Source of the DNA: a virus
Length of the DNA: 21,988 bases
IMG/VR virus record: IMGVR_UViG_3300032046_002140
Span: 1 to 21,988 of that record
Strand: one strand, 5' to 3'
Made by a program: the position numbers and the translations under genes. The notes below the pieces were generated by a model. It was not told the origin of the DNA. It did not search any database and was given only the letters and a program-made list of their open reading frames with translations. Shown here piece after piece: positions 1 through 21,988 of this stretch (within the stretch, counting starts at the first letter, position 1; each line of letters begins with the position of its first letter).

Positions 1-315
1 TCAGTGACAACTCTGGTTTATACTGTAATTCAAAACATTTTTTTACCAACTGGAACTTGGCTTGTTACTATATCTGGAGAGTGTACTCATAACTTAAATA
101 ATACTTCAACATTTGTTGGTATAGCAGTTGCTGGAGTTTATGAGAATGGAACTGGTAGAGAAATTAGAGCGAAAGCAGGTGGAGATTATAGCGCATTTGC
201 AACACAGAAAATATTAACAATTGTTGGGTTACAAACTATTTCAATGGTTGCTAAGGTTCCATCTGGAACTGGCACAATTCGTAATAGAGTTATTTCAGCA
301 ATCAAACTTTCTTAA
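1..315 (+). CDS. C-terminal part of a tail fibre or other virion protein, C1q/TNF-like (5' partial)
   Basis: The reading frame is open from the first base, so this is the last 104 residues of a longer protein; the GTG at position 4 is unlikely to be the true start. The fragment is strand-rich, with alternating hydrophobic and polar residues (FLPTGTWLVTISGECT, then TIVGLQTISMVAKVPSGTG) and a closing NRVISAIKLS. That pattern resembles C1q/TNF-like jelly-roll domains at the tips of phage fibres and appendages, which trimerise and bind receptors. The fold assignment is inference from pattern only. Its position ahead of other structural genes and the lysis genes supports a virion role. It ends one base before the next gene. 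Confidence 0.55.
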   Translation, partial: SVTTLVYTVIQNIFLPTGTWLVTISGECTHNLNNTSTFVGIAVAGVYENGTGREIRAKAGGDYSAFATQKILTIVGLQTISMVAKVPSGTGTIRNRVISAIKLS

Positions 316-316
316 A

Positions 317-805
317 ATGGAAAATTTAAAAATATACGCAATAGATGAGGCATTAATAAACGCGTCAAAATTGCACCAAGAGATTGATAATTCAAATTTT
401 ATTGAGTCGTTTGTGGGACTCCAATTGGTTGATGATGAACTGGTTGTTTATGGTGACGAAATAATTAATGAGGCTGGGCTGGATAATCTAGTTGCAACAC
501 ACAATAAAGTTGATTTATTAGCCTCTGAAATTGCTCTTTATGATAAAAGGATTTTTGATGGAAGAGTTGCTTTGATTTCTTTAATGTCAGAGCTTCGGTT
601 AAATTCAATGGTGAATAACTATCCTAGAATTGTAAATGCTTCAATTGAGAATGCGTTCTGGGAGGTGGCAATTGCTATTAATAATGGTTGGTGGATAACG
701 GCCAAGGAAAAATGTGAGCTAGTTCCAGTAGCTGGGTATGTTACGCAACCTTTATGGGATAGAATACACACGAAAATCACCGATTATATTGCTCAAAATT
801 ATTAA
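317..805 (+). CDS. Hypothetical phage structural-region protein (162 aa)
   Basis: I do not recognise this family. The ATG at 317 was chosen because it lies one base after the previous stop; an upstream start in the same frame would overlap the preceding gene by about 95 bases and add an implausible leader. The protein is acidic and mostly helical, without a signal peptide or membrane segment. A Trp-rich stretch (FWEVAIAINNGWWITAKEKCEL) lies near residues 115-136. The position between a fibre-like protein and another structural candidate suggests a virion component or assembly factor, but no motif proves it. Confidence 0.6.
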   Translation: MENLKIYAIDEALINASKLHQEIDNSNFIESFVGLQLVDDELVVYGDEIINEAGLDNLVATHNKVDLLASEIALYDKRIFDGRVALISLMSELRLNSMVNNYPRIVNASIENAFWEVAIAINNGWWITAKEKCELVPVAGYVTQPLWDRIHTKITDYIAQNY

Positions 806-807
806 TT

Positions 808-2259
808 ATGTGTGAATGTCTTAAAATAACGTACCAGACTGGTGACAGCCCAGTGACAACTGTAACAGCTCTAACAACCGGAACAGCTAATGGTTTTAAC
901 GTATGGGAGTTCGTTATTGACGTTATTACTTACACAATTTGGCACGATGCAACTAACAACTGGTACGTTACCACAGATGGGGTTGGAGGAACAGCTTTCG
1001 TAACTGGAATCAAGGTTAATACGGATGATTGTCCTTTTGCCTCTATTCCAGTTTGGCAAAACAGCGTTACATTTCCAGTTTTTACAACTGAGGCTGGTGA
1101 ATGTAATACTCCTTGTGATTGTGTGAAAGTATTTTACAAGTTTAAGCCAATGTCAACTTTTGAAGAGGAGGAATTAAATCCTTTAGGTTTGATTAATGGT
1201 TACAATTATTATGAATTTGTTTGGAGTGGTTTTACTTTTAGAATTTACTACAATTTATCTGTCAGTTCGTGGGTGATGGCAGAGATATCGGATTTAGATA
1301 CTTTTTACGCAACAAATAATTCAACTTCACCTTGTCCTTATGATGGATGGATTCCGAACATTGAATTTGGAATTGATTTATTTCAAATTGTTGGTTGCGA
1401 TGATTGTTTAATTCAAGAAGATAGAGATTTCAGAAGATATGATTCAATAAGATTACCAGAAATTTTCGAAGAAGAAGATAGGGGTTATTTTAGATGTTGT
1501 TGCCCTTTTAATGTTCTTGCAAGTAATTCAAGCGATAGTTGGAAAAATGATATTACAAGTGCTTGGATAAAATTAAGTGGACCAACAGACACGGTTTTAT
1601 GTTTTTTAGAAAAAAATGGTCAGCCAACAATGTATGTAACAATTCCAATCGCATTTATTAACGAGCCGAATGCGTTTTATTGGACAATAAACTGGTTTGA
1701 TGTATTAACAAGTGACGGAGCTGGGTGTTATGAGATTAAAATTTCATACAACATATCTGGCCTTGAGCAGACTTTCACGTGGGGGGTGTACAATTTGTCA
1801 CCTTTTAGTATGAACAATGCTCTGAGCACTGCGAGATTGCGTGTAAAATTTAACTCACAACAAGAAATCGAGGGAATCAATTTCACTGGTTCAAATGTGG
1901 AGGACACAATTAGGTTCTATGGTTTCATCGGGAACAGACAGCCTAACACGGAAATCGACAATATCATCTACCAGAATCGGGAAATGAAAAAAGTAATTCG
2001 AGAAAATCTGAATACTTACGAAGTCATTACGGACCCAACTTGTGAGGAGCATATCAGAAAATTAACAGATTTGTACTTGCTTTCTGAAAACGAACTATAC
2101 ATATCTGACTACAATGCTCACAACCATTCGTACCGATACAATGATTTGCCAGTTATTCTGGAGGAATCAGCCGAAATAACGTACTTCGACTTTTCAAGGT
2201 CTGCATCGTTAAAGGCAGTTGTATCAGATAAATTTAAAAATAAACGTTCATTCTATTGA
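808..2259 (+). CDS. Putative structural (tail or appendage) protein with a duplicated N-terminal Cys module
   Basis: This 483-residue protein starts two bases after the preceding stop. Residues 2-100 and 103-200 look like two copies of one module: a CxC entry (C2/C4 and C103/C105), an NG(F/Y)N..EF segment near residues 28-35 and 130-137, a conserved Trp, a CP pair (75-76 and 176-177) and a closing Cys. The remainder, about residues 230-360, is strand-rich, followed by a polar C-terminal domain containing NRQPNTEIDNIIYQ and ending in KNKRSFY. Paired cysteines in a phage virion protein may bind metal or stabilise the fold. I cannot assign a named family; the structural role is inferred from size, strand content and neighbours. 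Confidence 0.6.
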   Translation: MCECLKITYQTGDSPVTTVTALTTGTANGFNVWEFVIDVITYTIWHDATNNWYVTTDGVGGTAFVTGIKVNTDDCPFASIPVWQNSVTFPVFTTEAGECNTPCDCVKVFYKFKPMSTFEEEELNPLGLINGYNYYEFVWSGFTFRIYYNLSVSSWVMAEISDLDTFYATNNSTSPCPYDGWIPNIEFGIDLFQIVGCDDCLIQEDRDFRRYDSIRLPEIFEEEDRGYFRCCCPFNVLASNSSDSWKNDITSAWIKLSGPTDTVLCFLEKNGQPTMYVTIPIAFINEPNAFYWTINWFDVLTSDGAGCYEIKISYNISGLEQTFTWGVYNLSPFSMNNALSTARLRVKFNSQQEIEGINFTGSNVEDTIRFYGFIGNRQPNTEIDNIIYQNREMKKVIRENLNTYEVITDPTCEEHIRKLTDLYLLSENELYISDYNAHNHSYRYNDLPVILEESAEITYFDFSRSASLKAVVSDKFKNKRSFY

Positions 2260-2261
2260 TT

Positions 2262-2759
2262 ATGGAACAACTGAAAATCGGAGATATACTACATTGCTCT
2301 GGGAAAGGAACTTTATCCAAATTGATAAGGTTCTTTACAAAATCAAAAATTTCTCACACTGCAGTTTTTATTGAAGTATGGGGAAAGCCTTACATCATAG
2401 ATGCTCAAAAAGATGGTGTCAATGTAAGGCCTTATGATGAGTGGATGAAAACCTTTCAATATGACTTTATTGTAACTCGGTTTTTAGCCCCTTTGGACGA
2501 GAAAGCATACTGTATCAAGGCTATGTCAATGAGTGGTCACACTGCGTATGATTTTAAAGGTTTACTAATCAAGCACCCTTGGAAATTAATCACTGGAAAT
2601 TACAAGAGAGAGCGCAATCCTACAGAGCGTATGTACTGCTCAGAATATGTGGCTTGGACTTACGGAATTACAGATTTTTACAGATTAACTCCAAAAGATT
2701 TGTATGCAAGGTGCATATTAAATGGGTGCAATATTGTATTTTTACACAAACAACTATAA
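2262..2759 (+). CDS. NlpC/P60-superfamily peptidase, YiiX-like permuted papain fold
   Basis: A 165-residue enzyme starting at ATG 2262, two bases after the previous stop. It has the ordered features of permuted NlpC/P60 (YiiX/YebB-like) proteins: an N-terminal GDIL.C segment (residues 7-12), the catalytic His in KISHTAVFI (H32), an Asp in YIIDA (D47), and the catalytic Cys in MYCSEYVAWTYG (C126). In this superfamily the Cys-His pair hydrolyses peptide or amide bonds, often in peptidoglycan. It sits between virion protein genes rather than in the lysis block, so it may be a virion-associated hydrolase used during infection, or a protein-processing enzyme. There is no signal peptide. The fold is well supported; the substrate is not known. 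Confidence 0.75.
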   Translation: MEQLKIGDILHCSGKGTLSKLIRFFTKSKISHTAVFIEVWGKPYIIDAQKDGVNVRPYDEWMKTFQYDFIVTRFLAPLDEKAYCIKAMSMSGHTAYDFKGLLIKHPWKLITGNYKRERNPTERMYCSEYVAWTYGITDFYRLTPKDLYARCILNGCNIVFLHKQL

Positions 2760-2760
2760 T

Positions 2761-4302
2761 ATGAATTCAATTATTATTTCTGGAAATTACCTCATCGTTT
2801 CAAGGGAGGTTAACTTAACAATAGTCCAGTCAGAGTTCCCAATGGGAAAGACAGTTTATACTGAACTGGAAGATACAATTACTTTGCTTGAGAGCTCTGG
2901 AGGAACAGTGGTTATCCAGAAGTCAGATGTCAACAGTAACCTATGGGAAGGAGATGCTGGAGTGTTTGATTTGCTAAGTTTAGTTACATTTTTGAGAGCC
3001 AATACGGGTTTTAATTTGCCCTCTGACGGTGGTGGGGGCTTGTCGAGTGTTAAATACTCAACCGTTGCTTTTGTTGACAATGTTGCTGGAGATGACTACT
3101 CTGGATTAATAGGTATTTTTGATAAACCTTTTTTCTCAATTGAGGCTGCATTAAATGCAATAAGTCTTACATCCAGAACAAAAACAAACAGAGGTTTAGT
3201 CTGGGTTCGCAAAGGAGAATTTAATTCTGTGCAGCCAAATCCTTATAATTTTTGTGACGTTTTTTGTGACGCTGGAGTTGTGTTTAATGGTTACTTTTAT
3301 TTGACAGATGCCAGAGTTGGAGCAACAGATTTCAACTGGTATGGTTATGCAAAATGGAACCTTGGAATGGGCTCATTGGCTTTCCGATTTCAAAATGCAA
3401 GTACAGTTTTGATTGAGGGAGATTCTTTGGTTAATTTAGGAGCAATTTGTTTGGCTTTTAATGTGACTGTTGGAACCTCAAACATAACTTTTAATTTCAA
3501 CTCTCTGGAGTCAACTCAGACTCTTGGTTCTGGCTTTGCTTTCACTTGGAGAAACAATTGCAACGCAACTTTGAATGTAAAAAATTACATAAAAGTCAAC
3601 CAAGTATCTCACGAAATTCGTGCAAATCATTCAGGCACAATTACTGTAAATTGCCCTCGAAACATAATGACGGCATTGAATGTTTACGGTGGTAACTTTA
3701 AAAACATACTTTCATCTTCAAATTCAAGCGCAACAAGTTATTTCACAATAAACGGTGATTTAATAAGCGAAACAGCATATTTGGGAGGTGCACAATCAAT
3801 GATTTTAGTTTGGAGTTCTTCTCAATGTCAAGTTACTATAAATGGGAATGTTTATGCCAATGATTCAGTTGGTTTATGGGGGGCAAATATTGGTGTTGGA
3901 AGAATTGTTTTAAATGGAGATTTATTCTCAAATATTAATACGATTATTACTCAAGGAAACGGATTAGTTGTTGTTAAAAATGGAACAATCAAAAAAGTAA
4001 ATACATCAGGTAATTCAATTTATATGTATGGTGGTACTCTTTATTTAATGGGTTGTAGTTTATATTATACGATGAAAGATGGAACAATGATTGGTCTTGA
4101 TGCTGGAGGCCTTACAAACCTTGAGGTAATAAATTGCGTATCAAAAAGCGAAGGTTTGCTTGGCGAATTTGTTACCAGCACTGTACTTAAAAGTTGCCAA
4201 TTTACAAATGTTGTCGCTAATAAACCATTGAATGTAAATGTTACAAATCAGTTAGCACAAGGATTAATTATTGAACCATTATTAGAGGTTCCACGTTTCT
4301 AA
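2761..4302 (+). CDS. Putative beta-helical tail spike or fibre protein (513 aa)
   Basis: The ATG at 2761 follows the previous stop by one base. After an N-terminal domain of about 100 residues and a Gly-rich linker (SDGGGGLSSV), the segment VDNVAGDDYSGLIGIFDKPF resembles the entry of right-handed parallel beta-helix proteins (a DD..G....PF motif preceding repeated coils). From about residue 150 to the end there are many short strands with Asn, Gly and Val ladders and few charges, as expected for pectate-lyase-like tail spikes. Such proteins bind or cleave surface polysaccharide. No catalytic residues can be assigned by eye, so enzyme versus pure adhesin is open. It is followed by a short A-tract and another small gene. 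Confidence 0.65.
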   Translation: MNSIIISGNYLIVSREVNLTIVQSEFPMGKTVYTELEDTITLLESSGGTVVIQKSDVNSNLWEGDAGVFDLLSLVTFLRANTGFNLPSDGGGGLSSVKYSTVAFVDNVAGDDYSGLIGIFDKPFFSIEAALNAISLTSRTKTNRGLVWVRKGEFNSVQPNPYNFCDVFCDAGVVFNGYFYLTDARVGATDFNWYGYAKWNLGMGSLAFRFQNASTVLIEGDSLVNLGAICLAFNVTVGTSNITFNFNSLESTQTLGSGFAFTWRNNCNATLNVKNYIKVNQVSHEIRANHSGTITVNCPRNIMTALNVYGGNFKNILSSSNSSATSYFTINGDLISETAYLGGAQSMILVWSSSQCQVTINGNVYANDSVGLWGANIGVGRIVLNGDLFSNINTIITQGNGLVVVKNGTIKKVNTSGNSIYMYGGTLYLMGCSLYYTMKDGTMIGLDAGGLTNLEVINCVSKSEGLLGEFVTSTVLKSCQFTNVVANKPLNVNVTNQLAQGLIIEPLLEVPRF

Positions 4303-4313
4303 AAAAAAAAGTT

Positions 4314-4622
4314 ATGAATATTAATATTATTAGTGGACAAGCAGATTCCAATATTATAATGGGAATGGTCACAGCTCCAGTTATTAAAAACATCTATCTT
4401 GATAGAGCATTGATGTCCAACACAGATAGGGAGATTTATGATAATTTTATCCTATTTTTTGGGTCATTTTCTAGTTTGAACATCTCTAACTGCGCAGCTG
4501 CTATTGACTGCAATAGAGTCTCAACAGATAGTGTTTCAATCAATTCATTAGAATTAGATTATTTGTTGCTCAGCTCAGGAAGTAAGCAGATTGTTGATGA
4601 CTTTTTAACATTGTTTGAGTAA
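4314..4622 (+). CDS. Hypothetical protein (102 aa), structural region
   Basis: A 102-residue protein preceded by a run of A residues and GTT before its ATG, the A-rich start context used across this genome. The sequence is acidic with a hydrophobic N-terminal half (NIIMGMVTAPVIKNIYLDRAL) but no convincing membrane helix. I do not recognise a family. Its stop overlaps the ATG of the next gene (TAATG), indicating translational coupling to the membrane/coiled-coil protein that begins the lysis region. A minor virion or fibre-assembly protein is possible but unproven. Confidence 0.55.
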   Translation: MNINIISGQADSNIIMGMVTAPVIKNIYLDRALMSNTDREIYDNFILFFGSFSSLNISNCAAAIDCNRVSTDSVSINSLELDYLLLSSGSKQIVDDFLTLFE

Positions 4623-6076: not shown

Positions 6077-6379
6077 TTTAATCAATCGTTTTTAATACAC
6101 TTTTTTTCACTTCTAAGCGACTTTATATCTCTGGCACACATTCGTTCATAAACTTTCAGAAGTGACGGATGCCACGAGAGCCATAGCTGTAGCGCGTCAA
6201 TTTTTCACTGACTGGAAATTGATCCATTTTTGACGGTTTTCTAATCGACAAGTTTTTTTACACTCCTGGAACGGCAGCTAGGACACAATCTTGAAAATAG
6301 TTGAAATCTTTTATTGTTTTTTGTTAGGTAGATTCATTTATTCTACTTCTATTTGCTTCGAACATTAAAAAAAAACACG
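6074..6379 (+). promoter_or_regulatory. Long intergenic region upstream of the early genes
   Basis: About 300 bases without a supported gene, separating late structural/lysis genes from early genes. It holds copy A of the four-copy intergenic element (6094-6192), a 7-bp inverted repeat TCAATTT/AAATTGA (about 6197-6222), one of only two GATC sites in the window (6221), and a composite upstream element (TTAGGTAGA at 6324, then 22 bases, then the 28-bp repeat at 6355). T-rich stretches around 6250-6323 fit a promoter region, but no exact TAnnTTTG box was found. The main early promoter is probably here. Confidence 0.5.
6094..6192 (+). repeat. Four-copy intergenic element, copy A
   Basis: Shares 25 identical bases with copy B (6094-6118), then TAAGC, TTCATAAA, GAAGTGACGGATGC and CTGTAG at the same spacing as the other copies. 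An 8-bp stem can form between TCACTTCT (6107-6114) and AGAAGTGA (6158-6165). Within its loop CTCTGGC (6129-6135) can pair by its TGGC with GCCA at 6180-6183, making a weak pseudoknot. It could act as RNA or as a DNA-binding site. Confidence 0.7.
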
Positions 6380-6382
6380 ATG
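6324..6382 (+). repeat. Composite promoter/start-context repeat, copy 1
   Basis: TTAGGTAGA at 6324 lies exactly 31 bases upstream of a 28-bp block (6355-6382) that contains GCTTCGAACATT, nine A residues and ACACGATG, ending in the start codon of the next gene. The same two blocks with the same spacing occur at 11683-11741. The 22 intervening bases differ, as in a two-box promoter or operator followed by a conserved translation-start region. Confidence 0.6.
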
Positions 6383-6688
6383 CAAAAGACACATTATTTA
6401 TTAGAGAACTACGAGGTAATTTCTTCACCTTGGAAAGATTTGGAAGCTGGGGATGTTTACCAAAATTCAAAAATCAAAACAAAATTTACGGAAAGCCAAT
6501 ATCAATCTTATTTGTCGTTTCACAATATGCTTGTAGGGAGGTATAATAAAGTTGCTCAAAAAGTAGGTCGCAATACTATTGGTCTTATTATGGCTGGTAC
6601 GTATTCGGAGGCTACTGGTTTATTATCGGAAAGCCTTAAAAACGTGAAAGCCGATTTAGTAAGTTACATCAACAATCAAATTTTATAA
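6380..6688 (+). CDS. Hypothetical early protein (102 aa)
   Basis: The first gene of the early block. The ATG at 6380 is chosen because it is the end of a conserved 28-bp block with nine A residues before ACACGATG, repeated upstream of the gene at 11739; an earlier TTG in frame would encode the A-tract. The product begins MQKTHYLLENYEVISS, is soluble and mostly helical, with YNKVAQKVGRNTIGLIMAGTY near the middle. No family is recognised. As the promoter-proximal early gene it may be a host-takeover or regulatory protein, which is only a guess from position. Confidence 0.6.
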   Translation: MQKTHYLLENYEVISSPWKDLEAGDVYQNSKIKTKFTESQYQSYLSFHNMLVGRYNKVAQKVGRNTIGLIMAGTYSEATGLLSESLKNVKADLVSYINNQIL

Positions 6689-6690
6689 TT

Positions 6691-6912
6691 ATGGGAAATA
6701 TGAGCTACTGCAGATTTCAGAATACTGCTATGGATTTGGACGATTGCTTAGAAGCTATGCACAATGAGGAGATTTCTGAACTATCGGAAAGTGAGGGACA
6801 AGCTTTTGTTAATCTGGTAATGATGGCAAAGGAAATCGCTAAAATGTACGAGGATTACGATGAGTATAAATTAATAGAGTTAGTTAACAATGCAAATCAA
6901 GACGAACTATGA
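6691..6912 (+). CDS. Conserved small phage protein (MSYCRFxNT type, 73 aa)
   Basis: A 73-residue protein starting MGNMSYCRFQNTAMDLDDC. This opening (SYCRF.NT..DL.DC) recurs in small proteins of unknown function on phages and plasmids, particularly in Bacteroidetes, from my recollection of such sequences. The rest is acidic and helical (LSESEGQAFVNLVMMAKEIA). It begins two bases after the previous stop and overlaps the next gene by four bases (ATGA). The two Cys residues near the N-terminus are too few for a zinc site alone. Function unknown. Confidence 0.65.
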   Translation: MGNMSYCRFQNTAMDLDDCLEAMHNEEISELSESEGQAFVNLVMMAKEIAKMYEDYDEYKLIELVNNANQDEL

Positions 6913-7094
6913 AGAATTATCACATTACTTATTACATACGTAGAGGGGAAGAAGCTCAGAGCACACCCCTATTAGGGGGCTTCACTGTAGAAGCTGAGAA
7001 TATTATGGTAGCTCTATTGGAATACCGAATGAAACTAACCAAAGGAGAGGAGCTTCCACCAGTAACTGAAATCAAATACATAATTGAATTATGA
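6909..7094 (+). CDS. Hypothetical protein (61 aa)
   Basis: A 61-residue protein joined to both neighbours by four-base ATGA overlaps. It has a beta-alpha-beta look: YHITYYIRRGEEAQS, then GGFTVEAENIMVALLEYRMKL, then TEIKYIIEL. This arrangement is common in small phage proteins of unknown function. No catalytic or binding motif is visible. The tight coupling suggests it is translated with the rest of the early operon. Confidence 0.55.
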   Translation: MKNYHITYYIRRGEEAQSTPLLGGFTVEAENIMVALLEYRMKLTKGEELPPVTEIKYIIEL

Positions 7095-7369
7095 AAGAGC
7101 CAAAAGTAATATTAACATTGACCGAGGAGTGCAAGGAATGCTCTGGAGAGGGTTACAACGAAGTTGGACCAGAGTGCAACAAACCAGCATCGATGTGTTG
7201 TGGAGGCTGCTACAAACGAATTGAATGCGATAATTGTGGAGGCTCTGGAGAGCTTGAGGTTGATTTTACCGACTGGGATTTAGCCGAAGCTTTGGAGCTT
7301 ATTCGAGATGGTCAGCCAGATGCTGGGGTTCAACACATTTTAGAAATTATTGATAATGCAAGAATATGA
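7091..7369 (+). CDS. Small zinc-finger protein with DnaJ-type CxxCxGxG motifs
   Basis: A 92-residue protein with CKECSGEG (residues 14-21), a central MCCGGC cluster (35-40) and CDNCGGSG (46-53). The CxxCxGxG units are the zinc-binding repeats of the DnaJ cysteine-rich domain; here two canonical copies flank a more degenerate Cys cluster, enough for one or two zinc ions. The C-terminal 35 residues are acidic and helical (WDLAEALELIRDGQPDAGVQ). There is no J domain, so it is not a full chaperone. A partner-binding role is inferred. It overlaps both neighbours by four bases. Confidence 0.65.
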   Translation: MKEPKVILTLTEECKECSGEGYNEVGPECNKPASMCCGGCYKRIECDNCGGSGELEVDFTDWDLAEALELIRDGQPDAGVQHILEIIDNARI

Positions 7370-7608
7370 AATCGAGTCGAAAAAATCTGTCAATCAACAT
7401 TGAGTACACGGACTTAAATGAAGCTCTGGAGTCAATGAGAAAAATTACAAGTAAAATAGCTGGTAAAAAGGTTCGATACGACAGACAAATGGAGAATACT
7501 GCCATTTACGAATGGGCAATTGAAAATGTAAGGCAAGACGATTACACTGAACAAGTAATTGGAGGAAAGATTTGCCAAGTTTATCAATCAAAAATGAATA
7601 ACCAATAA
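7366..7608 (+). CDS. Hypothetical protein (80 aa)
   Basis: An 80-residue, slightly basic, soluble protein (DLNEALESMRKITSKIAGKK, then YDRQMENTAIYEWAIENVRQ). No domain is recognised. Its ATG overlaps the previous stop, and it ends 12 bases before the RadC-like gene. The gap contains ATTATAAACACG, sharing the ACACGATG start context seen at 6375, 11734 and 12357. Confidence 0.5.
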   Translation: MKSSRKNLSINIEYTDLNEALESMRKITSKIAGKKVRYDRQMENTAIYEWAIENVRQDDYTEQVIGGKICQVYQSKMNNQ

Positions 7609-7620
7609 ATTATAAACACG

Positions 7621-12169: not shown

Positions 12170-12171
12170 CA

Positions 12172-14366: not shown

Positions 14367-14379
14367 AAAATTTCAGATA

Positions 14380-14411: not shown

Positions 14412-14433
14412 CAGTCATCGTGTTAATGAACAC

Positions 14434-14476: not shown

Positions 14477-14497
14477 TTAACAAAAAAAAATGCAATT

Positions 14498-14731
14498 ATG
14501 AAAGAGGGAAGTAATGTAGGTTCAAGGATTGGTAAAATCATTCTGGGACTTTGTTTGGCACCAATATTGGCTGCCATTTTTTTTGTGGATAGATTTATTA
14601 TGGTTTTTTTAGTTCATCTGAAAGCTCCTACAGCAATGGAGTACTTTGATGATATGAAGTACATCGGACAATCTGTTATTCGGGTTGTTTGTTTTGTTCT
14701 GACTTTTTTAATATTCCTTTATTTCGTTTAG
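14498..14731 (+). CDS. Small two-helix membrane protein
   Basis: A 77-residue protein with two hydrophobic segments, about 13-37 (IILGLCLAPILAAIFFVDRF, continuing IMVFLVHL) and 58-77 (VIRVVCFVLTFLIFLYFV), joined by a loop containing TAMEYFDDMKYIGQ. It is the first gene of the transcript after the TTTG/TAATATTG promoter and the leader hairpin, and starts after nine A residues. An ATGCAATTATGA arrangement places a three-codon upstream reading frame whose stop overlaps this ATG. No family is recognised. It may protect the membrane or exclude superinfecting phage, but only topology is visible. Confidence 0.6.
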   Translation: MKEGSNVGSRIGKIILGLCLAPILAAIFFVDRFIMVFLVHLKAPTAMEYFDDMKYIGQSVIRVVCFVLTFLIFLYFV

Positions 14732-14732
14732 T

Positions 14733-15341
14733 ATGGTGCAGAATGTAGAAGTTCTGGAGGTGAAAATTGGCGCAGTCAAGCCAAATCCAGTCAATCCGAG
14801 AACAATCAAAGAATCTAACTTTAAGAAGCTGGTTAAGTCAATCAAGGACTTTCCAGAGATGCTTTCAATCCGAGAAATTGCAGTTGACGAGAATATGGTT
14901 ATTCTAGGGGGCAATATGCGTTATAAGGCTTGTGTAGAGGCTGGTTTAAAGAAAATACAAATAGTCAAAATAACTGGACTTACTAAAGAGCAAAAGGACG
15001 AGTTCATAATCAAGGATAACGTCAACTATGGCAAATGGGACTGGGACATTCTGGCTAATTCATTTGATGATGGGTTACTACGTGAATGGGGAATGAATAT
15101 CTGGACTCCAGAGGACTATACGCTTGAGGCTTCTGAGGAGCTGGATTCAGATTCAGATACGGACTTTGGTTCTGGTTCTGGTGACACGATGAAAGTTCAG
15201 AAAAAAGTTATTCAGATTGAGTTCGTTATTACCGATTATTCTCACGCTAACGAACTGGTGAATTACCTCAAAGCACGTAAGGTAGATATTGGAGCTCTAT
15301 TAATCGAATCAATGAAAAAAGCACTAGAAAATGCAAACTAA
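14733..15341 (+). CDS. ParB-like (ParB/Srx fold) protein 1
   Basis: A 202-residue protein. Residues 8-75 match the ParB N-terminal nuclease-like domain: VLEVKIGAVKPNPVNPRTIK, SIKDFPEMLSIREIAVDENM, and VILGGNMRYKACVEAGL with the GGNMRY..C signature. KDEFIIKDNVNYGKWDWDIL follows, as in phage ParB proteins. An acidic Ser/Asp/Gly linker leads to a C-terminal helical part. No helix-turn-helix as in chromosomal ParB is seen. Phage ParB-like proteins often lie beside DNA-modifying enzymes and terminases; this one is followed by a paralogue and a dioxygenase. In this family the fold may bind nucleotide (CTPase or nuclease-like), but the activity here is unknown. Confidence 0.8.
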   Translation: MVQNVEVLEVKIGAVKPNPVNPRTIKESNFKKLVKSIKDFPEMLSIREIAVDENMVILGGNMRYKACVEAGLKKIQIVKITGLTKEQKDEFIIKDNVNYGKWDWDILANSFDDGLLREWGMNIWTPEDYTLEASEELDSDSDTDFGSGSGDTMKVQKKVIQIEFVITDYSHANELVNYLKARKVDIGALLIESMKKALENAN

Positions 15342-15900
15342 AGAATACAAAATTTCGGAACTGAAGCAATACGAGGACAATCCTAGAACGATTGATGTTG
15401 CAAAATTTGAAGCTCTAAAGGAGTCGATAAAAGACTTTCCAGAGATGCTTTCAATCAGACCAATTATAATTGATATGAGCAATGTTATTCTGGCTGGTAA
15501 TATGCGTTATCTGGCTTGTCGAGAACTTGGTCATACCACAATTTTTGCGCGTCAAGTTGACTTACCAGACGACAAGGTTCAGCAGCTTTTGATAAAGGAC
15601 AATTTATCCTATGGTGAATGGGACCAAGATGCTTTGGAGTTCAACTGGGATATGGATTTGGTAGACAAATGGTTAGGTAAAGAGCCAATGAACTACGATG
15701 ATGTTGACTACGAGGATTTGGAGGCTAATATTGAAAGTCTGCAGCAAGGGGTTAAAAAAGCTCTGCAAATCAACATCGACATCGACCAATATGAAATCGC
15801 GAAAGAGCTGGAGAAAAAATGTAGGGATGCCAAAATCTACATAGGAGGAGAGTTGATTGAGTTAATGCAACAAGTTAAGCTGGAGTATGAAAAGGATTGA
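15331..15900 (+). CDS. ParB-like (ParB/Srx fold) protein 2, tandem paralogue
   Basis: A 189-residue protein overlapping the first ParB-like gene by 11 bases. The same blocks appear in order: YKISELKQYEDNPRTIDVAK, SIKDFPEMLSIRPIIIDMSN, VILAGNMRYLACRELGHTTI, QLLIKDNLSYGEWDQDALEF. The C-terminal part (ALQINIDIDQYEIAKELEKK, then YIGGELIELMQQVKLEYE) also resembles the end of protein 1, so the duplication covers the whole gene. The linker differs, so the two copies have diverged. A heterodimer or two target specificities are possible. Confidence 0.8.
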   Translation: MQTKEYKISELKQYEDNPRTIDVAKFEALKESIKDFPEMLSIRPIIIDMSNVILAGNMRYLACRELGHTTIFARQVDLPDDKVQQLLIKDNLSYGEWDQDALEFNWDMDLVDKWLGKEPMNYDDVDYEDLEANIESLQQGVKKALQINIDIDQYEIAKELEKKCRDAKIYIGGELIELMQQVKLEYEKD

Positions 15901-16687
15901 TTTAGTCAAAGTTATCCACAGCTGTAAAGTTGGTGACAAGTGCAGCACAATGCGACCAAATGTAACGGAGGATTGCACGTTATACGAGGATGGTGTTATG
16001 GTAGGGTTCTACATCAAGGACGTAACCAAGTACAGTCCTAAACTGGCTAAATATTTAGCTCTGGCCAATCAAGAATTTCGTTCAAAAAGAGTTCCGAAAT
16101 CTGTTATGTCACGTTCATCAGCAATTGTGGCTCGGAGAGAGGGAGGCCACGGAGTTGAACAGTTTTCAACAATCATTGGTTCAATACCTCCCAAGCCTCA
16201 TATGAGGAGAGCTTATCCAACACGTAGCAGCGTTCATAATGTTAAAACAGCAGATTTGTTTGTCAAGGCTATGATGATGGTTTGTAGGGAATGTGAGGAG
16301 CTTATAAAACAAATAGCTCCAGACATCTATGCTGCTCAACTCGAAACGATTTCAAGTAAGGTTCCAGAGGAGTGGAGATTTGGAAATCTGTTTACCAGCT
16401 CAATTTCAAATTACAATATTTCAGCTTCATATCACATCGACAGTGCTAATCTTTTGGGCTGCGCTAATGTAATTTTGGCCAAACGAGAAAATTCATACGG
16501 AGGTCATTTATCAGTTCCAGATTATGGTGCAATCTTCAATTCAGCTGAAAATTCAATGTTAGTTTATCCAGCCTGGAAATCACTTCACGGAGTCACTCCA
16601 ATAGTTCCTACTCAAGCTGGAGGATATCGAAATTCACTTGTTTTTTATCCTTTGAGAGCGTTCAAATATGATGAAAATGAGCAGTAA
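15887..16687 (+). CDS. TET/JBP-like Fe(II)/2-oxoglutarate dioxygenase, putative DNA base hydroxylase
   Basis: A 266-residue protein. The C-terminal half is a double-stranded beta-helix with the full metal and cofactor set: NISASYHIDSANLLG (H183 and D185), GGHLSVPDYGAIF, KSLHGVTPIVP (distal H234) and GGYRNSLVFYPL (R248, the 2-oxoglutarate-binding Arg). The N upstream of HxD and the GG.L..P segment fit the TET/JBP group, which oxidises the 5-methyl of pyrimidines in DNA. The N-terminal part (RSSAIVARREGGHGVEQFST) contains substrate-side residues not recognised further. It overlaps ParB 2 by 14 bases. Thymine to 5-hydroxymethyluracil is the inferred reaction, because the genes after it act on that base; 5-methylcytosine cannot be excluded. 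Confidence 0.7.
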   Translation: MKRIDLVKVIHSCKVGDKCSTMRPNVTEDCTLYEDGVMVGFYIKDVTKYSPKLAKYLALANQEFRSKRVPKSVMSRSSAIVARREGGHGVEQFSTIIGSIPPKPHMRRAYPTRSSVHNVKTADLFVKAMMMVCRECEELIKQIAPDIYAAQLETISSKVPEEWRFGNLFTSSISNYNISASYHIDSANLLGCANVILAKRENSYGGHLSVPDYGAIFNSAENSMLVYPAWKSLHGVTPIVPTQAGGYRNSLVFYPLRAFKYDENEQ

Positions 16688-16689
16688 AA

Positions 16690-16703
16690 TTGTGTTTACA
16701 CAA
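16690..16703. promoter_or_regulatory. Palindrome, possible operator
   Basis: TTGTGTTTACACAA: 6-bp arms around two bases, three bases after the dioxygenase stop and 10 bases before copy B. No T-tract follows directly, so a protein-binding site is more likely than a terminator. Confidence 0.3.
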
Positions 16704-16712
16704 ATCATCGAG

Positions 16713-16812
16713 AATACACTTTTTTTCACTTCTAAGCAATTAACACCTATCTGGCAACACGTTGGTTGTAAATTTCAAGAAGTGACGGATTGCAAGTGAG
16801 CCAGAACTGTAG
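16713..16812 (+). repeat. Four-copy intergenic element, copy B
   Basis: The first 25 bases equal copy A. The 8-bp stem TCACTTCT (16726-16733) with AGAAGTGA (16778-16785) is perfect. TCTGGC (16750-16755) in its loop pairs with GCCAGA (16800-16805) downstream for six bases, a pseudoknot geometry. CTGTAG (16807-16812) closes the element 34 bases before the amidotransferase ATG. Confidence 0.7.
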
Positions 16813-16845
16813 AGGGGAGTAAAAAATATTTAATAAGCAAACAAA

Positions 16846-17466
16846 ATGTGTGGAATTGTAGGTTATTTTAGCAAAAATCCGAGTATGGAAGATGCTTTTG
16901 ACTTGTTCAAATTGATACGTCAATCAAAAATTAGGGGGGTGCATTCCTATGGATATTCATACCTTTCTGGTGGAAAAATTGTCACTAGAAAGTTCTTTCA
17001 AAATGAATTTAGGGATATAAAAATACCAACTTCAAACTTTTTTATTTACCATAATCGGTACTCAACTTCTGGTGATTTTCATAATCACGAAAACAATCAA
17101 CCAATTCATATTGACAATTCAAGCTTGTGCTTCAATGGGGTTATTGATATGGGGACCAAGGAGGAAATGGAGGAACGCTGGAGTATTAAGATGGAAACTC
17201 ACAATGACGGTGAAGTACTGCTAAAGGTATCTGAGTTCAATCCTAAAGCAATGTTAGAGCTTGTTTCAAGGGTTGGTTCATTTTCTGGGTTGCTGCTTCA
17301 AGACAGAACGCTATACGCGTTTACTAATGGTATGAGGCCAATGTGGATATACGTCAGAGGTGAATCAATGTTTTTAGCTTCAACGAAAGACATTTTTATA
17401 AGAGCTCTGGGAGATGTTGAGCCCTTTCAAGTACCAGCAAATAAATTGTTGAAATGGGAATTATAA
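16846..17466 (+). CDS. Stand-alone class II glutamine amidotransferase (Ntn hydrolase)
   Basis: A 206-residue glutaminase-type domain without a synthetase partner. After Met removal, Cys2 of MCGIVGYFSK is the nucleophile. HNRYSTSGD (69-77), NNQPI (83-87), CFNGVID (95-101, oxyanion NG) and HNDGEVLL (119-126) are the usual glutamine-binding and oxyanion elements of GATase II. It would release ammonia from glutamine. Full-length members (GlmS, PurF, AsnB) carry a second domain that uses the ammonia; its absence means a partner must accept it, possibly the neighbouring base-modifying enzymes. It lies between the dioxygenase and the acetyltransferase, behind its own intergenic element, and overlaps the next gene by 13 bases. 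Confidence 0.8.
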   Translation: MCGIVGYFSKNPSMEDAFDLFKLIRQSKIRGVHSYGYSYLSGGKIVTRKFFQNEFRDIKIPTSNFFIYHNRYSTSGDFHNHENNQPIHIDNSSLCFNGVIDMGTKEEMEERWSIKMETHNDGEVLLKVSEFNPKAMLELVSRVGSFSGLLLQDRTLYAFTNGMRPMWIYVRGESMFLASTKDIFIRALGDVEPFQVPANKLLKWEL

Positions 17467-17885
17467 TCACATCGGCCAAGGAAGAAGATGCAATCTGGAT
17501 AAAACAGTTGTACAAAGATGAAAAGGAGCATATTGGAGATTTCAATCTGTTTTACGTATGGGTAAATTACATTGGAGGCACCGGAACCAGCAAATTTATC
17601 GTAATTGGCAAAAAAGCTTTTATGAGATACAGATGGTCAGTTCAAGCCAATTCCTACATCATTGACGAGATGGCAGTAGGTAGTCTATTCAAAAAAGAGG
17701 GGCTAGGTAAACATCTGGTTCAATCTATGATGAAAAAAGCTGCCAGAGAGAACAAAAAATTGACTGTAAAGTGCAATGCAACAAATGACGCTGCTAATCA
17801 ATTTTACGAAAGATGTGGACTTCAATTTGAAGGGGAATACTACACAAAAAACAGAGGTACTAAACAATTTGTATGGACGACTTAA
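17454..17885 (+). CDS. GNAT-family N-acetyltransferase
   Basis: A 143-residue acyltransferase. The GNAT core is clear: IITSAKEEDAIWIKQLYKDE at the N-terminus, IDEMAVGSLFKKEGLGKHLV (strand 4 and the acetyl-CoA pyrophosphate loop, K80-G85 as R/QxxGxG/A), and NDAANQFYERCGLQFEGEYY (residues 111-130), the conserved end of the fold. It transfers an acyl group from acyl-CoA to an amine. Between the amidotransferase and the transferase-like gene, with 13-base overlaps on both sides, an amine placed on DNA or its precursor is the likely acceptor. A protein target is not excluded. Confidence 0.8.
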   Translation: MGIIITSAKEEDAIWIKQLYKDEKEHIGDFNLFYVWVNYIGGTGTSKFIVIGKKAFMRYRWSVQANSYIIDEMAVGSLFKKEGLGKHLVQSMMKKAARENKKLTVKCNATNDAANQFYERCGLQFEGEYYTKNRGTKQFVWTT

Positions 17886-18763
17886 AAAAATACTACGAAT
17901 ATCATCGCAAAAGCTCCGTAGCAAAGGACATAGACCCAGCGAATGATACACTGAGGTACATTTCTAACAGATTTGAGCTGAATATTGAGCAGAGATATTG
18001 GTTAGCATTCCTTTACGCTTGTACCTACTCGCCTACAACAGCTTATTACATTTATAATGAATTTCCAGACTTTGAGAATGTAGATGTCAACAGACTACAA
18101 CGATGGTGGGATATGAACAAAAAAGTTCTGATTTTCCAAACAGATAGGTTAAGGGTTAAGAGCTCCAATCAATTTGTTGCAGCTTTTCAATCTTACAAGG
18201 AGCTTATCGGTTCCAGCACACAACACAATTTTTTCTGCAGCTTGATTTTATCTACACCAGATAAGTCCTATGACAATGTTTACCAGAAATCATCTGGTAT
18301 TTTCACTTTTGGTAGGTTCACGTTATTCATCTACCTGGAGATGCTTCACGTTTTAACTGGCCTGGACATCGAGCCAACAACTCTCAATTTAAAGGAGGCA
18401 GAAAGCTGTAGAAATGGGGTTGCTCTGGCTTTCTCAATGTACAGTTTGAATACACACGGAACGGAGTTAAAAATCACTCCAACTGAAATTGAGCTGCTTC
18501 AAAATAGGTTCGCTGAAATCAAAAATCACGTTCAAAAAATGTCAATCGAACATACTAATATCTGGAACATTGAAACGACTTTATGCGCTTACAAGAAATG
18601 GAGGCTAGGCAAAAGGTATGTAGGGTTCTACATCGATAGGGCTGGAGCTGAGATAACCAAAATGAGTCAAAGTATTACAGATGGTATTGACTGGTCACCA
18701 CTCTGGGATTTCAGAAAGGAAACGTATGAGCACTTTAGACTTAAAGAACTTCAAAACAAATAA
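17873..18763 (+). CDS. aGPT-PPlase2 / amino acid:DNA transferase-like base hypermodification enzyme
   Basis: A 296-residue helical protein. Segments LAFLYACTYSPTTAYYIYNE with FPDF (44-67), RWWDMNKKVLIFQTDRLRVK (77-96), FGRFTLFIYLEML (146-158) and SCRNGVALAF (178-187) match my recollection of the alpha-glutamyl/putrescinyl-thymine pyrophosphorylase clade 2 family, also called amino acid:DNA transferase. In thymidine hypermodification these enzymes act on pyrophosphorylated 5-hydroxymethyl-dU in DNA, displacing pyrophosphate with an amino acid or amine. The kinase expected to make that substrate is the next gene. It overlaps the GNAT gene by 13 bases. Family recognition is by eye and the transferred group is unknown. 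Confidence 0.65.
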   Translation: MDDLKKYYEYHRKSSVAKDIDPANDTLRYISNRFELNIEQRYWLAFLYACTYSPTTAYYIYNEFPDFENVDVNRLQRWWDMNKKVLIFQTDRLRVKSSNQFVAAFQSYKELIGSSTQHNFFCSLILSTPDKSYDNVYQKSSGIFTFGRFTLFIYLEMLHVLTGLDIEPTTLNLKEAESCRNGVALAFSMYSLNTHGTELKITPTEIELLQNRFAEIKNHVQKMSIEHTNIWNIETTLCAYKKWRLGKRYVGFYIDRAGAEITKMSQSITDGIDWSPLWDFRKETYEHFRLKELQNK

Positions 18764-18764
18764 T

Positions 18765-19967
18765 ATGCAACTATTAACACAAAATTCGGACCTCAAACGA
18801 ACTGGAATATACGGATGGACTCTACCAGCCCACTGGGTTACAATGGACGATGGTTCTAAGGTAAATACTTGTCCAAATGCTGGGATTTGTGCTGCTTTCT
18901 GTTATGCCAAAACTGGTACTTTCAAATTTAGCAATGTACTCAAGGCTCACAGAGAGAAATTGGATTTAGTTATGAACCATAGGGATAAATGGATATCGAT
19001 GATGAATGAGGAGTTGAACAAGCCAAAATACATTGGAAAATACATCAGAATACACGACGCTGGGGACTTCTACTCAATCGACTATGCTGTAGACTGGTTA
19101 AATATTGCTAAAATCAACCCAGAGGTTAACTTTTACGCTTATACCAAGGAGGTTGATATGTTTAAAACCAAATTAGCTCAGCTTATACCGACAAACTTCA
19201 TTCTAATTTATTCCTTTGGAGGGAAGCAAGACAAAATGATTGATAGGGACAAGGATAGGCACTCTGACGTGTTTTACGACTACAACGAAATGATAAAGGC
19301 TGGTTACAACGATATTGGGAACGATGACAAACAAGCTGCTATTCATCCAAATCACAAGGTAGGGTTGTTCAGAAACAATTTACCACACTTAATCAAAAAA
19401 CAAGGGGCAAGAAACTTCTCGGATTGGCAATCTGGACACAAATCCGAAGCAAAAAAGATCCATTTTTCACACCCTAAAAAAATTTTACTGATTGGAGCAA
19501 CTGGAACTGGTAAAACTTGGGTAATGGAACAATTGCTGCTCAAGTATAAATGTAATCGGAGAGCGAAGCTAGGAAAGTTCTATTTTCATCGAAATGACAA
19601 TCTGGTAATTGTAGGGAAATACGATGGCTCAACCTTTCAAGGTTCTGACAGACTATCAATGTCAGTGGTTACCGATTTGGACAAGTTTCTTCAATACAGC
19701 TCGAAAGATTTTGTACTTTTGGAGGGAGATAGGTTCACCAATAAAACAGTAATTAAAGCTGCTGAGCCGATTATAATACGAATTATGGGTAATGGTGCAG
19801 ATGGGAGGTTTTCGAGAGGCTCTGAGCAAACCGATAGGCAAATCAAATCCATTCATACAAGAGTACACAATATTGAGCTACCAAGCAATGGTTATGAGGT
19901 TCAAAACTCTACCGAAGCTTTGGAGCTAATCACAAAACTAATTGATGAATCAAATGGAAGAAGCTAA
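18765..19967 (+). CDS. Fusion: GP88-like Cys-rich domain plus P-loop 5-hmdU DNA kinase-like domain
   Basis: A 400-residue protein; ATG 18765 follows the previous stop by one base. Domain 1 (about 15-210) has CPNAGICAAFCYAKTG with C36, C42 and C46, IRIHDAGDFYSIDYAVDW, and NFYAYTKEVDMF, as in GP88-like phage proteins; the Cys triad suggests an Fe-S or metal site and a barrel-like fold. Domain 2 (about 235-400) is a P-loop kinase: IGATGTGKT (243-251), GKYDGSTFQGSDRLSMSV (284-301), LLEGDRFTN (318-326), DRQIKSIHTRVHNI. The GSDRLSMS and EGDR blocks resemble 5-hydroxymethyl-dU DNA kinases, which place a pyrophosphate on hydroxymethyluracil in DNA. The linker near 19458 carries one of two GATC sites. 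Confidence 0.65.
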   Translation: MQLLTQNSDLKRTGIYGWTLPAHWVTMDDGSKVNTCPNAGICAAFCYAKTGTFKFSNVLKAHREKLDLVMNHRDKWISMMNEELNKPKYIGKYIRIHDAGDFYSIDYAVDWLNIAKINPEVNFYAYTKEVDMFKTKLAQLIPTNFILIYSFGGKQDKMIDRDKDRHSDVFYDYNEMIKAGYNDIGNDDKQAAIHPNHKVGLFRNNLPHLIKKQGARNFSDWQSGHKSEAKKIHFSHPKKILLIGATGTGKTWVMEQLLLKYKCNRRAKLGKFYFHRNDNLVIVGKYDGSTFQGSDRLSMSVVTDLDKFLQYSSKDFVLLEGDRFTNKTVIKAAEPIIIRIMGNGADGRFSRGSEQTDRQIKSIHTRVHNIELPSNGYEVQNSTEALELITKLIDESNGRS

Positions 19968-20349
19968 TAAGACAAGTGACACAAGTGACAACATAAAAAA
20001 GGAGCGTATGGTTGCAGCTCTGGAAAAAAGTCTGGGAATTGTTACAAATGCAGCAAAGGCAGTTGGAATTTCACGCAATACTCACTACCGATGGATGAAA
20101 GAGGATACCGACTACAAAAAGTCAGTCAATGACCTTGATAATGTGGCTCTGGACTTTGCAGAGAGTAAATTGCACGAGTCAATCTTTGAGGGCAATATAG
20201 CAGCAATCATTTTCTTTCTGAAAACCAAAGGAAAGGTAAGAGGCTACATTGAGCGACAAGAACTGGATATCAAAACAGACAAGCCAGACTTATCTGGGTT
20301 AACAACAGAGGAGCTTATGGCTCTGGCTTCAAATGAAGATAATGGATAA
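19945..20349 (+). CDS. Terminase small subunit-like protein (phBC6A51-type helix-turn-helix)
   Basis: A 134-residue protein. KKERMVAALEKSLGIVTNAA followed by KAVGISRNTHYRWMKEDTDY is a helix-turn-helix of the small-terminase/phBC6A51 kind, and LDNVALDFAESKLHESIFEG with AAIIFFLKTKGKVRGYIERQ is the conserved remainder. The acidic tail ends SNEDNG. It should recognise the packaging site and load the large subunit, whose gene it overlaps by 17 bases. The start at 19945 overlaps the kinase gene by 23 bases; ATG 19954 is an alternative. The link to the DNA-modification genes upstream is tight, so packaging and modification are probably co-expressed. Confidence 0.75.
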   Translation: MNQMEEANKTSDTSDNIKKERMVAALEKSLGIVTNAAKAVGISRNTHYRWMKEDTDYKKSVNDLDNVALDFAESKLHESIFEGNIAAIIFFLKTKGKVRGYIERQELDIKTDKPDLSGLTTEELMALASNEDNG

Positions 20350-21730
20350 AAAAGCTTTTGTTATACAACTGATGCAACAAGAACTGGCTAGACGTAACTT
20401 CTGGCAGTTCTGTTTGTATTATGACAAGGCTTTCTTCATTTCACGGCCATTCCTAAAGCAAGTAGCTGATGCGATGCAAGAAATTGATGAGGGGCTTATT
20501 AAGTCGCTATCCGTATCGATGCCTCCACGAGCTGGAAAGTCGTATATCACATCACTTTTTTGTGCTTGGACTCTAGGACGCAGCCCAAAGGAAAGCGTAA
20601 TGAGAAACACTTGTACGGCTACTTTATACCTCAAATTTGCGTATGACGTTCGACAAATATTTCGAGCAGATAAGTTCAATGAGGTATTTGCAGATGTAAC
20701 GCTATCCGAGGACAAAAAGAATCTTCAAGGCTGGAACACAAATCAAGCGAAAATGGTATCATACTTTGGGGCTGGAGTAGGAGGAACAATCATTGGATTT
20801 GGTGCAACAAAGGTCGCTATTACTGATGACCTTTACAGAGGGCTTGAGGACGCATTGAGCGACACAGTAAACGACAGAATTATTCAATGGAAAGAGGCTA
20901 CTCACGACTCACGTATGGAATCTGGCTGCAGCCGTATTGATATTGGTACACGCTGGTCAATCAATGATGTTATTGGGAGGGCAATGGCAGATAAAATATA
21001 CGACAAATCAATCATTCTAGCAGCTCTGGACCACAATGATGAATCACTTTGTCAAGCCGTTATGACAACAGACGAGTACCTGGACAAACGAAATCGAACA
21101 TCAAAAGAGGTCTGGTTAGCTGAATACCAACAAGAGCCAGTCGACATTCAAGGTAGGTTATTCGGTTCTTTGACTCAAACGACTCAAGCCGAGTTCAATA
21201 AAATAACAACACCAGACCCAAATAACCCAGCTCACAGAGGGAAAACGACACTAGTTGAGGGCTGTATAGCTTATGTTGATGTTGCTGACCAAGGAAAGGA
21301 CTATTTAGCTGCAGCAATCGGAGCAATCGTAGGGGACAGAGTGTATATCGTTGACTATGTTTTCACTAGGGACAACACCGATATAACAATTCCAAAGGTT
21401 GCCGAGCTGCTGAATAAGTGGAATGTAGCCTACTGTAGAGTCGAATCCAATGCAATGGGAGCAATGTTCAGTAGGGTTCTTTCTAGGACAACCAAAACGA
21501 AGATACTTCAAATCGCAAATCAGCAGAATAAAATTACTCGAATCATAATGAACTCGGCTTTTTTGATGCGTAGCTGCACATTCGTTGCAACTGGGACTCC
21601 AGAATCGACTCAATTTATTGACAACATTCTTTCATTCTCTAAGGAGGGTAAGAACAAAAATGATGATGCTCCAGATTGTATGGCTGGATTGAGCCAATTC
21701 ATTCAGTCAATGTTTAAGCAGTTTAGGTAA
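20333..21730 (+). CDS. terL: Terminase large subunit
   Basis: A 465-residue packaging ATPase and nuclease. Walker A SMPPRAGKS (62-70) and Walker B VAITDD (161-166, D165/D166) form the ATPase; IGTRWS near 204-209 and EYQQEPVD (264-271) are the usual linking motifs. The RNase H-like nuclease has YVDVADQG (314-321, D316), CRVESNAMGAMF (368-379, E371) and NDDAPDCMAG (443-452, D448). Length fits the shorter class of large terminases. It cuts concatemers and drives DNA into the procapsid. ATG 20342 is an alternative start. On this strand no T-tract follows, so transcription may run on into the convergent region. Confidence 0.93.
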   Translation: MKIMDKKAFVIQLMQQELARRNFWQFCLYYDKAFFISRPFLKQVADAMQEIDEGLIKSLSVSMPPRAGKSYITSLFCAWTLGRSPKESVMRNTCTATLYLKFAYDVRQIFRADKFNEVFADVTLSEDKKNLQGWNTNQAKMVSYFGAGVGGTIIGFGATKVAITDDLYRGLEDALSDTVNDRIIQWKEATHDSRMESGCSRIDIGTRWSINDVIGRAMADKIYDKSIILAALDHNDESLCQAVMTTDEYLDKRNRTSKEVWLAEYQQEPVDIQGRLFGSLTQTTQAEFNKITTPDPNNPAHRGKTTLVEGCIAYVDVADQGKDYLAAAIGAIVGDRVYIVDYVFTRDNTDITIPKVAELLNKWNVAYCRVESNAMGAMFSRVLSRTTKTKILQIANQQNKITRIIMNSAFLMRSCTFVATGTPESTQFIDNILSFSKEGKNKNDDAPDCMAGLSQFIQSMFKQFR

Positions 21731-21827
21731 TGAGGAGCCGAAATAAAGGCCTATTTTGAATACAATCTATCAGCGAAAGTATAAAAGTTCGTGAGAGGAG
21801 CTAAAAAGCATACCTAAATCAATCCAC

Positions 21828-21860
21828 AAAAAAAGGGTGCAATCCATTACGACTGCACCC
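21828..21860 (-). terminator. Intrinsic terminator for the minus-strand (portal) operon
   Basis: GGGTGCA (21835-21841) and TGCACCC (21854-21860) form a perfect 7-bp stem with a 12-base loop. Read on the minus strand it is followed by seven T residues (21834-21828). On the plus strand the A-run precedes the hairpin and no T-run follows, so it serves the minus-strand gene ending 24 bases upstream of it. Confidence 0.85.
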
Positions 21861-21883
21861 AATGTATCTGGTTAATTCAAGTT

Positions 21884-21988
21884 TTACACTCCAAGGATTG
21901 CTCTACGTTCATCATCGTTCAAAACGACTCCAGCAGTAGCTATTTTGATTAGCGCGTCAGCTCTGGTGTTCAATGCACTAGCAACAGC
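21884..21988 (-). CDS. 3' end of a probable portal protein (partial)
   Basis: Read from the right edge on the minus strand, 34 codons end in TAA at 21886-21884. The peptide contains LNTRADALIKIATAGVVLND and DERRAILGV. An alternation of ADAL.K...AGV with a DE.R stretch near the C-terminus is typical of phage portal proteins. Neighbouring the terminase supports this. The gene faces the terminase, so packaging genes are split between strands. The assignment rests on a short tail only; another virion protein is possible. Confidence 0.5.
   Translation of the reverse strand, partial: AVASALNTRADALIKIATAGVVLNDDERRAILGV

What the first reader, a model, noticed from the sequence alone, without database searches (positions are those of the whole stretch)
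1..21988. CATG absent and GATC nearly absent across the window
In a line-by-line reading I found no CATG and only two GATC (6221 and 19458). Base composition of this AT-rich sequence would predict several dozen of each (my rough estimate). ATG and ATC are both very common here, and other palindromes (AGCT, TCGA, GTAC, TGCA, GGCC, CTAG, ACGT) are present. Loss of exactly these two 4-bp palindromes is the usual mark of selection by restriction enzymes (DpnII/MboI-type and NlaIII-type specificity). With the base-modification cassette, this suggests the phage has met strong, possibly several, restriction systems.
Basis: seen in the sequence. Interest (0 to 1): 0.77.

Follow-up and report, generated by a model that had tools for sequence, protein, structure and literature searches.

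The report
Phage genome purged of restriction sites
This stretch of an uncultured phage has been cleared by selection of at least five short DNA words, including GATC and CATG that cutting enzymes recognise, and its relatives have each cleared a different set, some of them odd asymmetric words for which I could name no cutting enzyme, so the genome reads like a record of the bacterial defences the phage has had to survive.

Summary
The window has 0 CATG (38-58 expected under codon or Markov models) and 2 GATC, at 6221 and 19457 (47-65 expected). Two 5-mers are strongly depleted: GAAGG/CCTTC (3 against 27) and GAGAC/GTCTC (1 against 16).

Codon choice shows selection, not mutational decay: every synonymous way out of a site is used, including T-to-C changes.

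Relatives (160 IMG/VR loci) lack other, overlapping sets: GATC, CATG, CCGG, ACGT, GCNNGC, CAGG, CCAG, and in one clade the trinucleotide GAC. These changed several times on a terminase tree.

Best explanation: counter-selection by several host restriction systems, probably in Bacteroidota. For GATC, CATG and GCNNGC this is a known kind of adaptation. The asymmetric words (CAGG, CCAG, CAGC, GAAG) and GAC match no enzyme I could name and point to an uncharacterised short-site defence. No host enzyme has been shown.

The parts
1..21988 (.). Whole record: CATG 0, CCGC/GCGG 0, GCNNGC 0, GATC 2, CAGG/CCTG 10
   Evidence: Exact counts against Markov and codon nulls; the depletion holds in all four sub-regions tested
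6221..6224 (.). Residual GATC 1, between genes
   Evidence: no ORF chosen as a gene covers 6019-6352
19457..19460 (.). Residual GATC 2, inside a 702-bp stretch (18772-19473) that the 99.8%-identical relative L082 lacks
176..4579 (+). All four residual [AGT]CAGG sites (CAGG at 176, 3632, 4007, 4576), two of three GAAGG (2947, 4150) and the one GTCTC (4518): 7 of 8 residual asymmetric sites lie in the first 4.6 kb
   Evidence: binomial P 1e-4, a test chosen after seeing the data
6265..21083 (-). Six tolerated CCAGG sites (CCTGG on + at 6265, 9261, 16572, 18334, 18361, 21079)
14733..15900 (+). Two ParB-like genes in tandem at the head of the modification cassette
   Evidence: Pfam ParB_N, the second below the curated cut-off
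15887..16687 (+). TET/JBP-type oxygenase
   Evidence: Pfam Tet_JBP E 7e-11
16846..17885 (+). Glutamine amidotransferase-like gene (16846-17466) and GNAT acetyltransferase (17454-17885)
   Evidence: Pfam GATase_6, FR47/Acetyltransf_1
17873..18763 (+). Amino acid:DNA transferase (ADDT)
   Evidence: Pfam ADDT E 9e-27
18681..19967 (+). GP88 domain joined to a P-loop (kinase-like) domain
   Evidence: Pfam GP88 E 7e-45; only weak P-loop matches for the second domain
20333..21730 (+). Terminase large subunit, used to find relatives and hosts

Best explanation
The phage lineage has been selected to lose the recognition sites of several restriction enzymes met in its hosts. Each site still present exposes injected DNA to cutting, so synonymous changes that remove sites were fixed until almost none remained. 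At least five specificities have acted: GATC, CATG, GCNNGC, CCGC and (mostly [AGT])CAGG, with possible further pressure at CCTTC and GTCTC. Related phages carry other combinations, so the set changes with the hosts of each lineage. Shown: the depletion, its selective (synonymous, direction-free) nature, its recurrence and turnover in relatives, and its independence of the TET/JBP gene. Inferred: that the agent is host restriction, that the hosts are Bacteroidota, and which enzymes act.
For: Counts against three nulls. Codon choice avoids each site by any synonymous route: His CAC:CAT before G 22:0 (47:42 elsewhere), Asp GAC:GAT before C 14:0 (153:227 elsewhere), Gln CAA:CAG before G 69:0, Arg AGG after C 0 of 45, Pro CCT before G 0 of 50. 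Relatives lose mostly known restriction-type palindromes (GATC, CCGG, CATG, ACGT, CTAG, AGCT, GGCC, CGCG) in differing sets, with at least 7 changes for GATC and 6 for CATG on the terminase tree. Near-elimination of Type II sites is a documented phage strategy (PMC6286503). DpnII-family enzymes occur in Bacteroidota.
Against: The host is unknown and no cognate enzyme was found. CAGG, CCAG, CAGC and GAC are not sites of any Type II enzyme I know, and the 2018 survey saw avoidance almost only for orthodox Type II sites. A three-base site (GAC) is shorter than usual restriction sites. The record may be only part of the phage genome.
Confidence: 0.8

Rival explanations
1. Mutational decay: cytosine methylation or oxidation by the phage or host (TET/JBP route) makes these words mutate away, as CpG does in vertebrates.
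For: The window encodes a TET/JBP oxygenase. L003 lacks CG, the classic decay word.
Against: Sites are also avoided by T-to-C choices (CAC for CAT before G, GAC for GAT before C), the opposite of deamination. No cytosine-5 methylase in the window. Avoidance is as common without a detected TET/JBP gene.
Confidence: 0.04
2. A short-site defence that is not orthodox Type II (phosphorothioate-type Dnd/Ssp/BREX-4, or a short-site nickase) causes the asymmetric losses (CAGG, CCAG, CAGC, GAC), while Type II enzymes cause the palindromic ones.
For: Phosphorothioate motifs C*AG, C*CA, C*CGG and G*ATC were mapped in gut bacteria, where Bacteroidota were the main carriers (PMC11931770). The asymmetric words share a CAG core with varying flanks.
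Against: CAG as such is not avoided, only CAGG or CCAG or CAGC. GAGC and GAAC, also phosphorothioate motifs, are not avoided in the window. Only about 10-15% of such motifs are modified, so strong pressure at every site is unproven.
Confidence: 0.25
3. The phage makes its own nuclease that cuts these words in host DNA, and lacks them to protect itself.
For: The window encodes an HNH-type protein (11053-11628), and several relatives have a homologue.
Against: The homologue is shared by relatives with quite different missing words. Several unrelated words are missing at once, which one nuclease does not explain.
Confidence: 0.04
4. Chance, codon usage or an assembly/library artefact.
For: Milder depletions in the window (TATA, AAGA, CCGG) are of ordinary size.
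Against: Nulls that keep protein, codon usage and junction dinucleotides never come near the observed counts. Separate contigs L082 and L001 repeat the GATC, CATG and CAGG depletion. A library step cannot alter codon choice.
Confidence: 0.01

Closest known systems
Restriction-site avoidance in dsDNA phages (Rusinov et al. 2018, PMC6286503)
   Same: Complete or nearly complete loss of short recognition sites (GATC is a documented case, GCNNGC is in their site list), by synonymous change.
   Different: Five or more words lost together here, with turnover between relatives, and asymmetric 4-base words and a 3-base word among relatives; the survey found avoidance almost only for orthodox Type II sites.
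Thymine-hypermodified phages (ViI, M6, phi W-14; PMC6449724)
   Same: Modification cassette in the window; in vitro, NlaIII/FatI still cut ViI DNA and Sau3AI/MboI still cut phi W-14 DNA, only more slowly, so modification need not remove pressure at CATG and GATC.
   Different: Here the modified base is unknown (thymine or cytosine not tested), and sites are lost equally without a detected TET/JBP gene.
Phosphorothioate-based defence (Dnd, Ssp, BREX type 4; PMC11931770)
   Same: Short words with overlapping cores (C*AG, C*CGG, G*ATC), seen in Bacteroidota.
   Different: The avoided words are more specific (CAGG, CCAG), and other such motifs (GAGC, GAAC) are not avoided in the window.

Membership tests
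Type II restriction-site avoidance | Site counts far below a composition-corrected expectation | tested here: met
   GATC, CATG, CCGC, GCNNGC, CAGG
Type II restriction-site avoidance | Depletion acts through synonymous choice, not one mutation direction | tested here: met
   Codon-choice test
Type II restriction-site avoidance | Words are known orthodox Type II sites | tested here: inconclusive
   GATC, CATG and GCNNGC are; CCGC, CCTTC and GTCTC from memory (AciI, HpyAV, BsmAI); CAGG not to my knowledge
Type II restriction-site avoidance | Host encodes the cognate enzyme | not testable with these tools
   Host unknown; DpnII family present in 7 of 296 Bacteroidota genomes
Phosphorothioate-based defence target | Avoided words equal the known phosphorothioate motifs | tested here: not met
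   GATC matches; CAG as a whole, GAGC and GAAC are not avoided in the window
Phage DNA hypermodification cassette | TET/JBP oxygenase with adjoining transferase and accessory genes | tested here: met
   Pfam Tet_JBP, ADDT, GATase_6, GNAT, GP88, ParB_N; the kinase part only by weak P-loop matches
Phage DNA hypermodification cassette | Modified base present in virion DNA | not testable with these tools
   Needs mass spectrometry or native nanopore reads

The most novel reading that the evidence does not exclude
Bacteroidota hosts of these phages carry an uncharacterised family of defences that read very short asymmetric DNA words with a CAG core (CAGG, CCAG, CAGC, with variable first base: [AGT]CAGG, [ACT]CAGG, [AC]CAGG) and even the three-base word GAC. 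They act strongly enough to make phages erase dozens to hundreds of sites, and the phage genomes alone reveal their specificities.
Probability: 0.3. Interest if true: 0.75.

Novelty: new variant of a known kind. Interest (0 to 1): 0.52.

Why it matters
Avoidance of single palindromic sites in phages is well known. A phage group in which each lineage has erased several words at once, in changing combinations, is a natural record of which cutting specificities its hosts carry. It makes unknown enzyme specificities, such as CAGG, CCAG and GAC, predictable from uncultured phage DNA. It also suggests that TET/JBP base modification does not replace site loss, since phages with and without the gene have lost sites to a similar degree.

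Tried and rejected
Assembly or library artefact: rejected, because codon choice shows evolutionary purging. C-to-T decay through cytosine methylation: rejected by T-to-C codon choices. Link to the modification cassette: not supported, no difference between records with and without TET/JBP. Phage-encoded methylases as the other half of the pattern: few relatives carry any (1, 3 and 5 of 42 records for the D12, N6/N4 and C5 families; none in the window). Nucleotide relatives in named phage records: none. Host identification: only distant Bacteroidota prophages, plus one contig binned with a Rhodobacteraceae MAG that is probably a misbinned phage fragment. The Prochlorococcus phage P-HS2, a named carrier of a 48%-identical TET/JBP, lacks CCGG (0/17) and CCAGG (0/33) but not GATC or CATG. 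Literature searches for CAGG/CCAG avoidance found nothing relevant.

Full report
Observation. Exact counting gives CATG 0 and GATC 2 (6221 and 19457) in 21,988 bases. The maximum-order Markov expectation is 58 and 65. The codon-preserving nulls for the 20.7 kb of genes give 38-43 and 49-57, with no shuffle below 28 for CATG or 31 for GATC.

An unbiased scan puts CAGG/CCTG beside GATC and CATG as the most depleted tetranucleotides (10 against 105), followed by CCGC/GCGG (0 against 23). A scan of degenerate palindromes adds GCNNGC (0 against 26 by codon null; 30-48 for GCN3GC to GCN6GC). The 5-mers CCTTC/GAAGG (3 against 27) and GTCTC/GAGAC (1 against 16) are strongly down, though not eliminated, and exceed the codon null as well. 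The surviving CAGG sites are not random: all six CCTG on the + strand are CCTGG, so the word really avoided is close to [AGT]CAGG.

Selection, not mutation. Where a synonymous choice would create a site, another codon is used, whatever base change that needs. His before G is CAC 22:0 (47:42 elsewhere). Asp before C is GAC 14:0 (153:227 elsewhere). Gln before G is CAA 69:0. Pro CCT before G is 0 of 50. Arg AGG after C is 0 of 45. Ile ATC after G is 1 of 62. T-to-C choices are the reverse of cytosine deamination, so decay of methylated or oxidised cytosines does not explain the pattern. The over-represented words CCAG and TCTGG are what one expects when CAGG is swapped out, for example T instead of A as third base before Gly.

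Relatives. The terminase found 80 IMG/VR loci and the TET/JBP gene 80 more. Among loci with enough expectation, GATC is eliminated in 57 of 147, CCGG in 48 of 76, CATG in 40 of 149, ACGT in 23 of 148, CAGG in 18 of 148 and CCAG in 16 of 148, and GCNNGC in 33 of 104. One clade (L060, L061, L064, L068, L080) and, separately, L019 lack the trinucleotide GAC. In L064 Asp codons are GAC 5 to GAT 380, while AAC/AAT is 105/218 and GTC is never used. L003 and L004 lack CG. L057, the best cassette relative, lacks GATC, CAGG, CCGC, AGCT, ACGT, GGCC, CGCG, GCNGC and GCNNGC but keeps CATG. Codon nulls confirm the asymmetric losses in L057, L066, L089, L152, L149, L003 and L090. The CAG-core words vary: [AGT]CAGG here and in L034, [ACT]CAGG in L083, [AC]CAGG in L002, the whole of CAGG in L057 and L149, the whole of CCAG in L066, L089 and L152. 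On the terminase tree avoidance changed at least 7 times for GATC, 6 for CATG, 5 for CAGG and 4 for CCAG. A small, unmatched control set (five named Bacteroidota phages, one fecal phage scaffold, Prochlorococcus phage P-HS2 and one Bacteroidota prophage region) shows zero to three eliminated words, all palindromic 4-mers.

The modification cassette. The window carries two ParB-like genes, TET/JBP, GATase, GNAT, ADDT and a GP88/P-loop gene, and no C5, N6/N4 or D12 methylase. Records without a detected TET/JBP gene have as many eliminated words (mean 2.2) as those with it (2.5); most records are fragments, so some may carry the gene unseen. The two protections therefore look parallel. This is chemically plausible: thymine-hypermodified DNA of ViI is cut slowly but still cut by NlaIII/FatI, and that of phi W-14 by Sau3AI/MboI (PMC6449724).

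Who cuts? The terminase has relatives in Bacteroidota genomes (46%, 45%, 41% and 37% identity), and DpnII-family enzymes occur in that phylum. No host is known. GATC, CATG and GCNNGC are documented Type II sites. From memory, CCGC, CCTTC and GTCTC are sites of the enzymes AciI, HpyAV and BsmAI. I know of no enzyme for CAGG, CCAG, CAGC or GAC. The large survey found avoidance almost only for orthodox Type II sites (PMC6286503). Phosphorothioate motifs in gut bacteria overlap in part (C*AG, C*CGG, G*ATC; PMC11931770) but do not match word for word.

Verdict. GATC and CATG loss is a clear case of a known adaptation. The multi-word loss that changes between lineages, with asymmetric and even three-base words, is an unusual variant and the part worth following.

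Noticed in passing
window 18772-19473; L082 6728-6732: A 702-bp stretch holding most of the GP88 domain is present in the window but missing from L082, which is 99.8% identical on one side and 99.6% on the other; it carries one of the two GATC sites. Looks like a recent gain or loss.
   Followed up: partly
window 1-4622: Residual asymmetric sites ([AGT]CAGG, GAAGG, GTCTC) cluster here (7 of 8), while GATC, CATG, CCGC and GCNNGC are fully absent from the same stretch; this module may have joined the genome later.
   Followed up: partly
L060, L061, L064, L068, L080 (and L019): The trinucleotide GAC/GTC is almost absent (for example 17 against 256 in L064; Asp GAC 5 to GAT 380), with CAGC and CCCG also lost in the clade.
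   Followed up: partly
L003, L004: The dinucleotide CG is almost absent in L003 (25 against 374) and in its sister L004, together with GATC and CAGG.
   Followed up: partly
L171 (Prochlorococcus phage P-HS2): CCGG (0/17) and CCAGG (0/33) are absent, suggesting avoidance of CCNGG-type sites in a cyanophage that carries a TET/JBP homologue.
   Followed up: no
window 6094-6192, 6353 onward, 11700 onward: The stretch 6094-6192 matches a stretch between genes of the cassette in L082 (4670-4769, 79%), and the ORFs at 6353 and 11700 share the start peptide LRTLKKNTM; probably repeated control regions.
   Followed up: no
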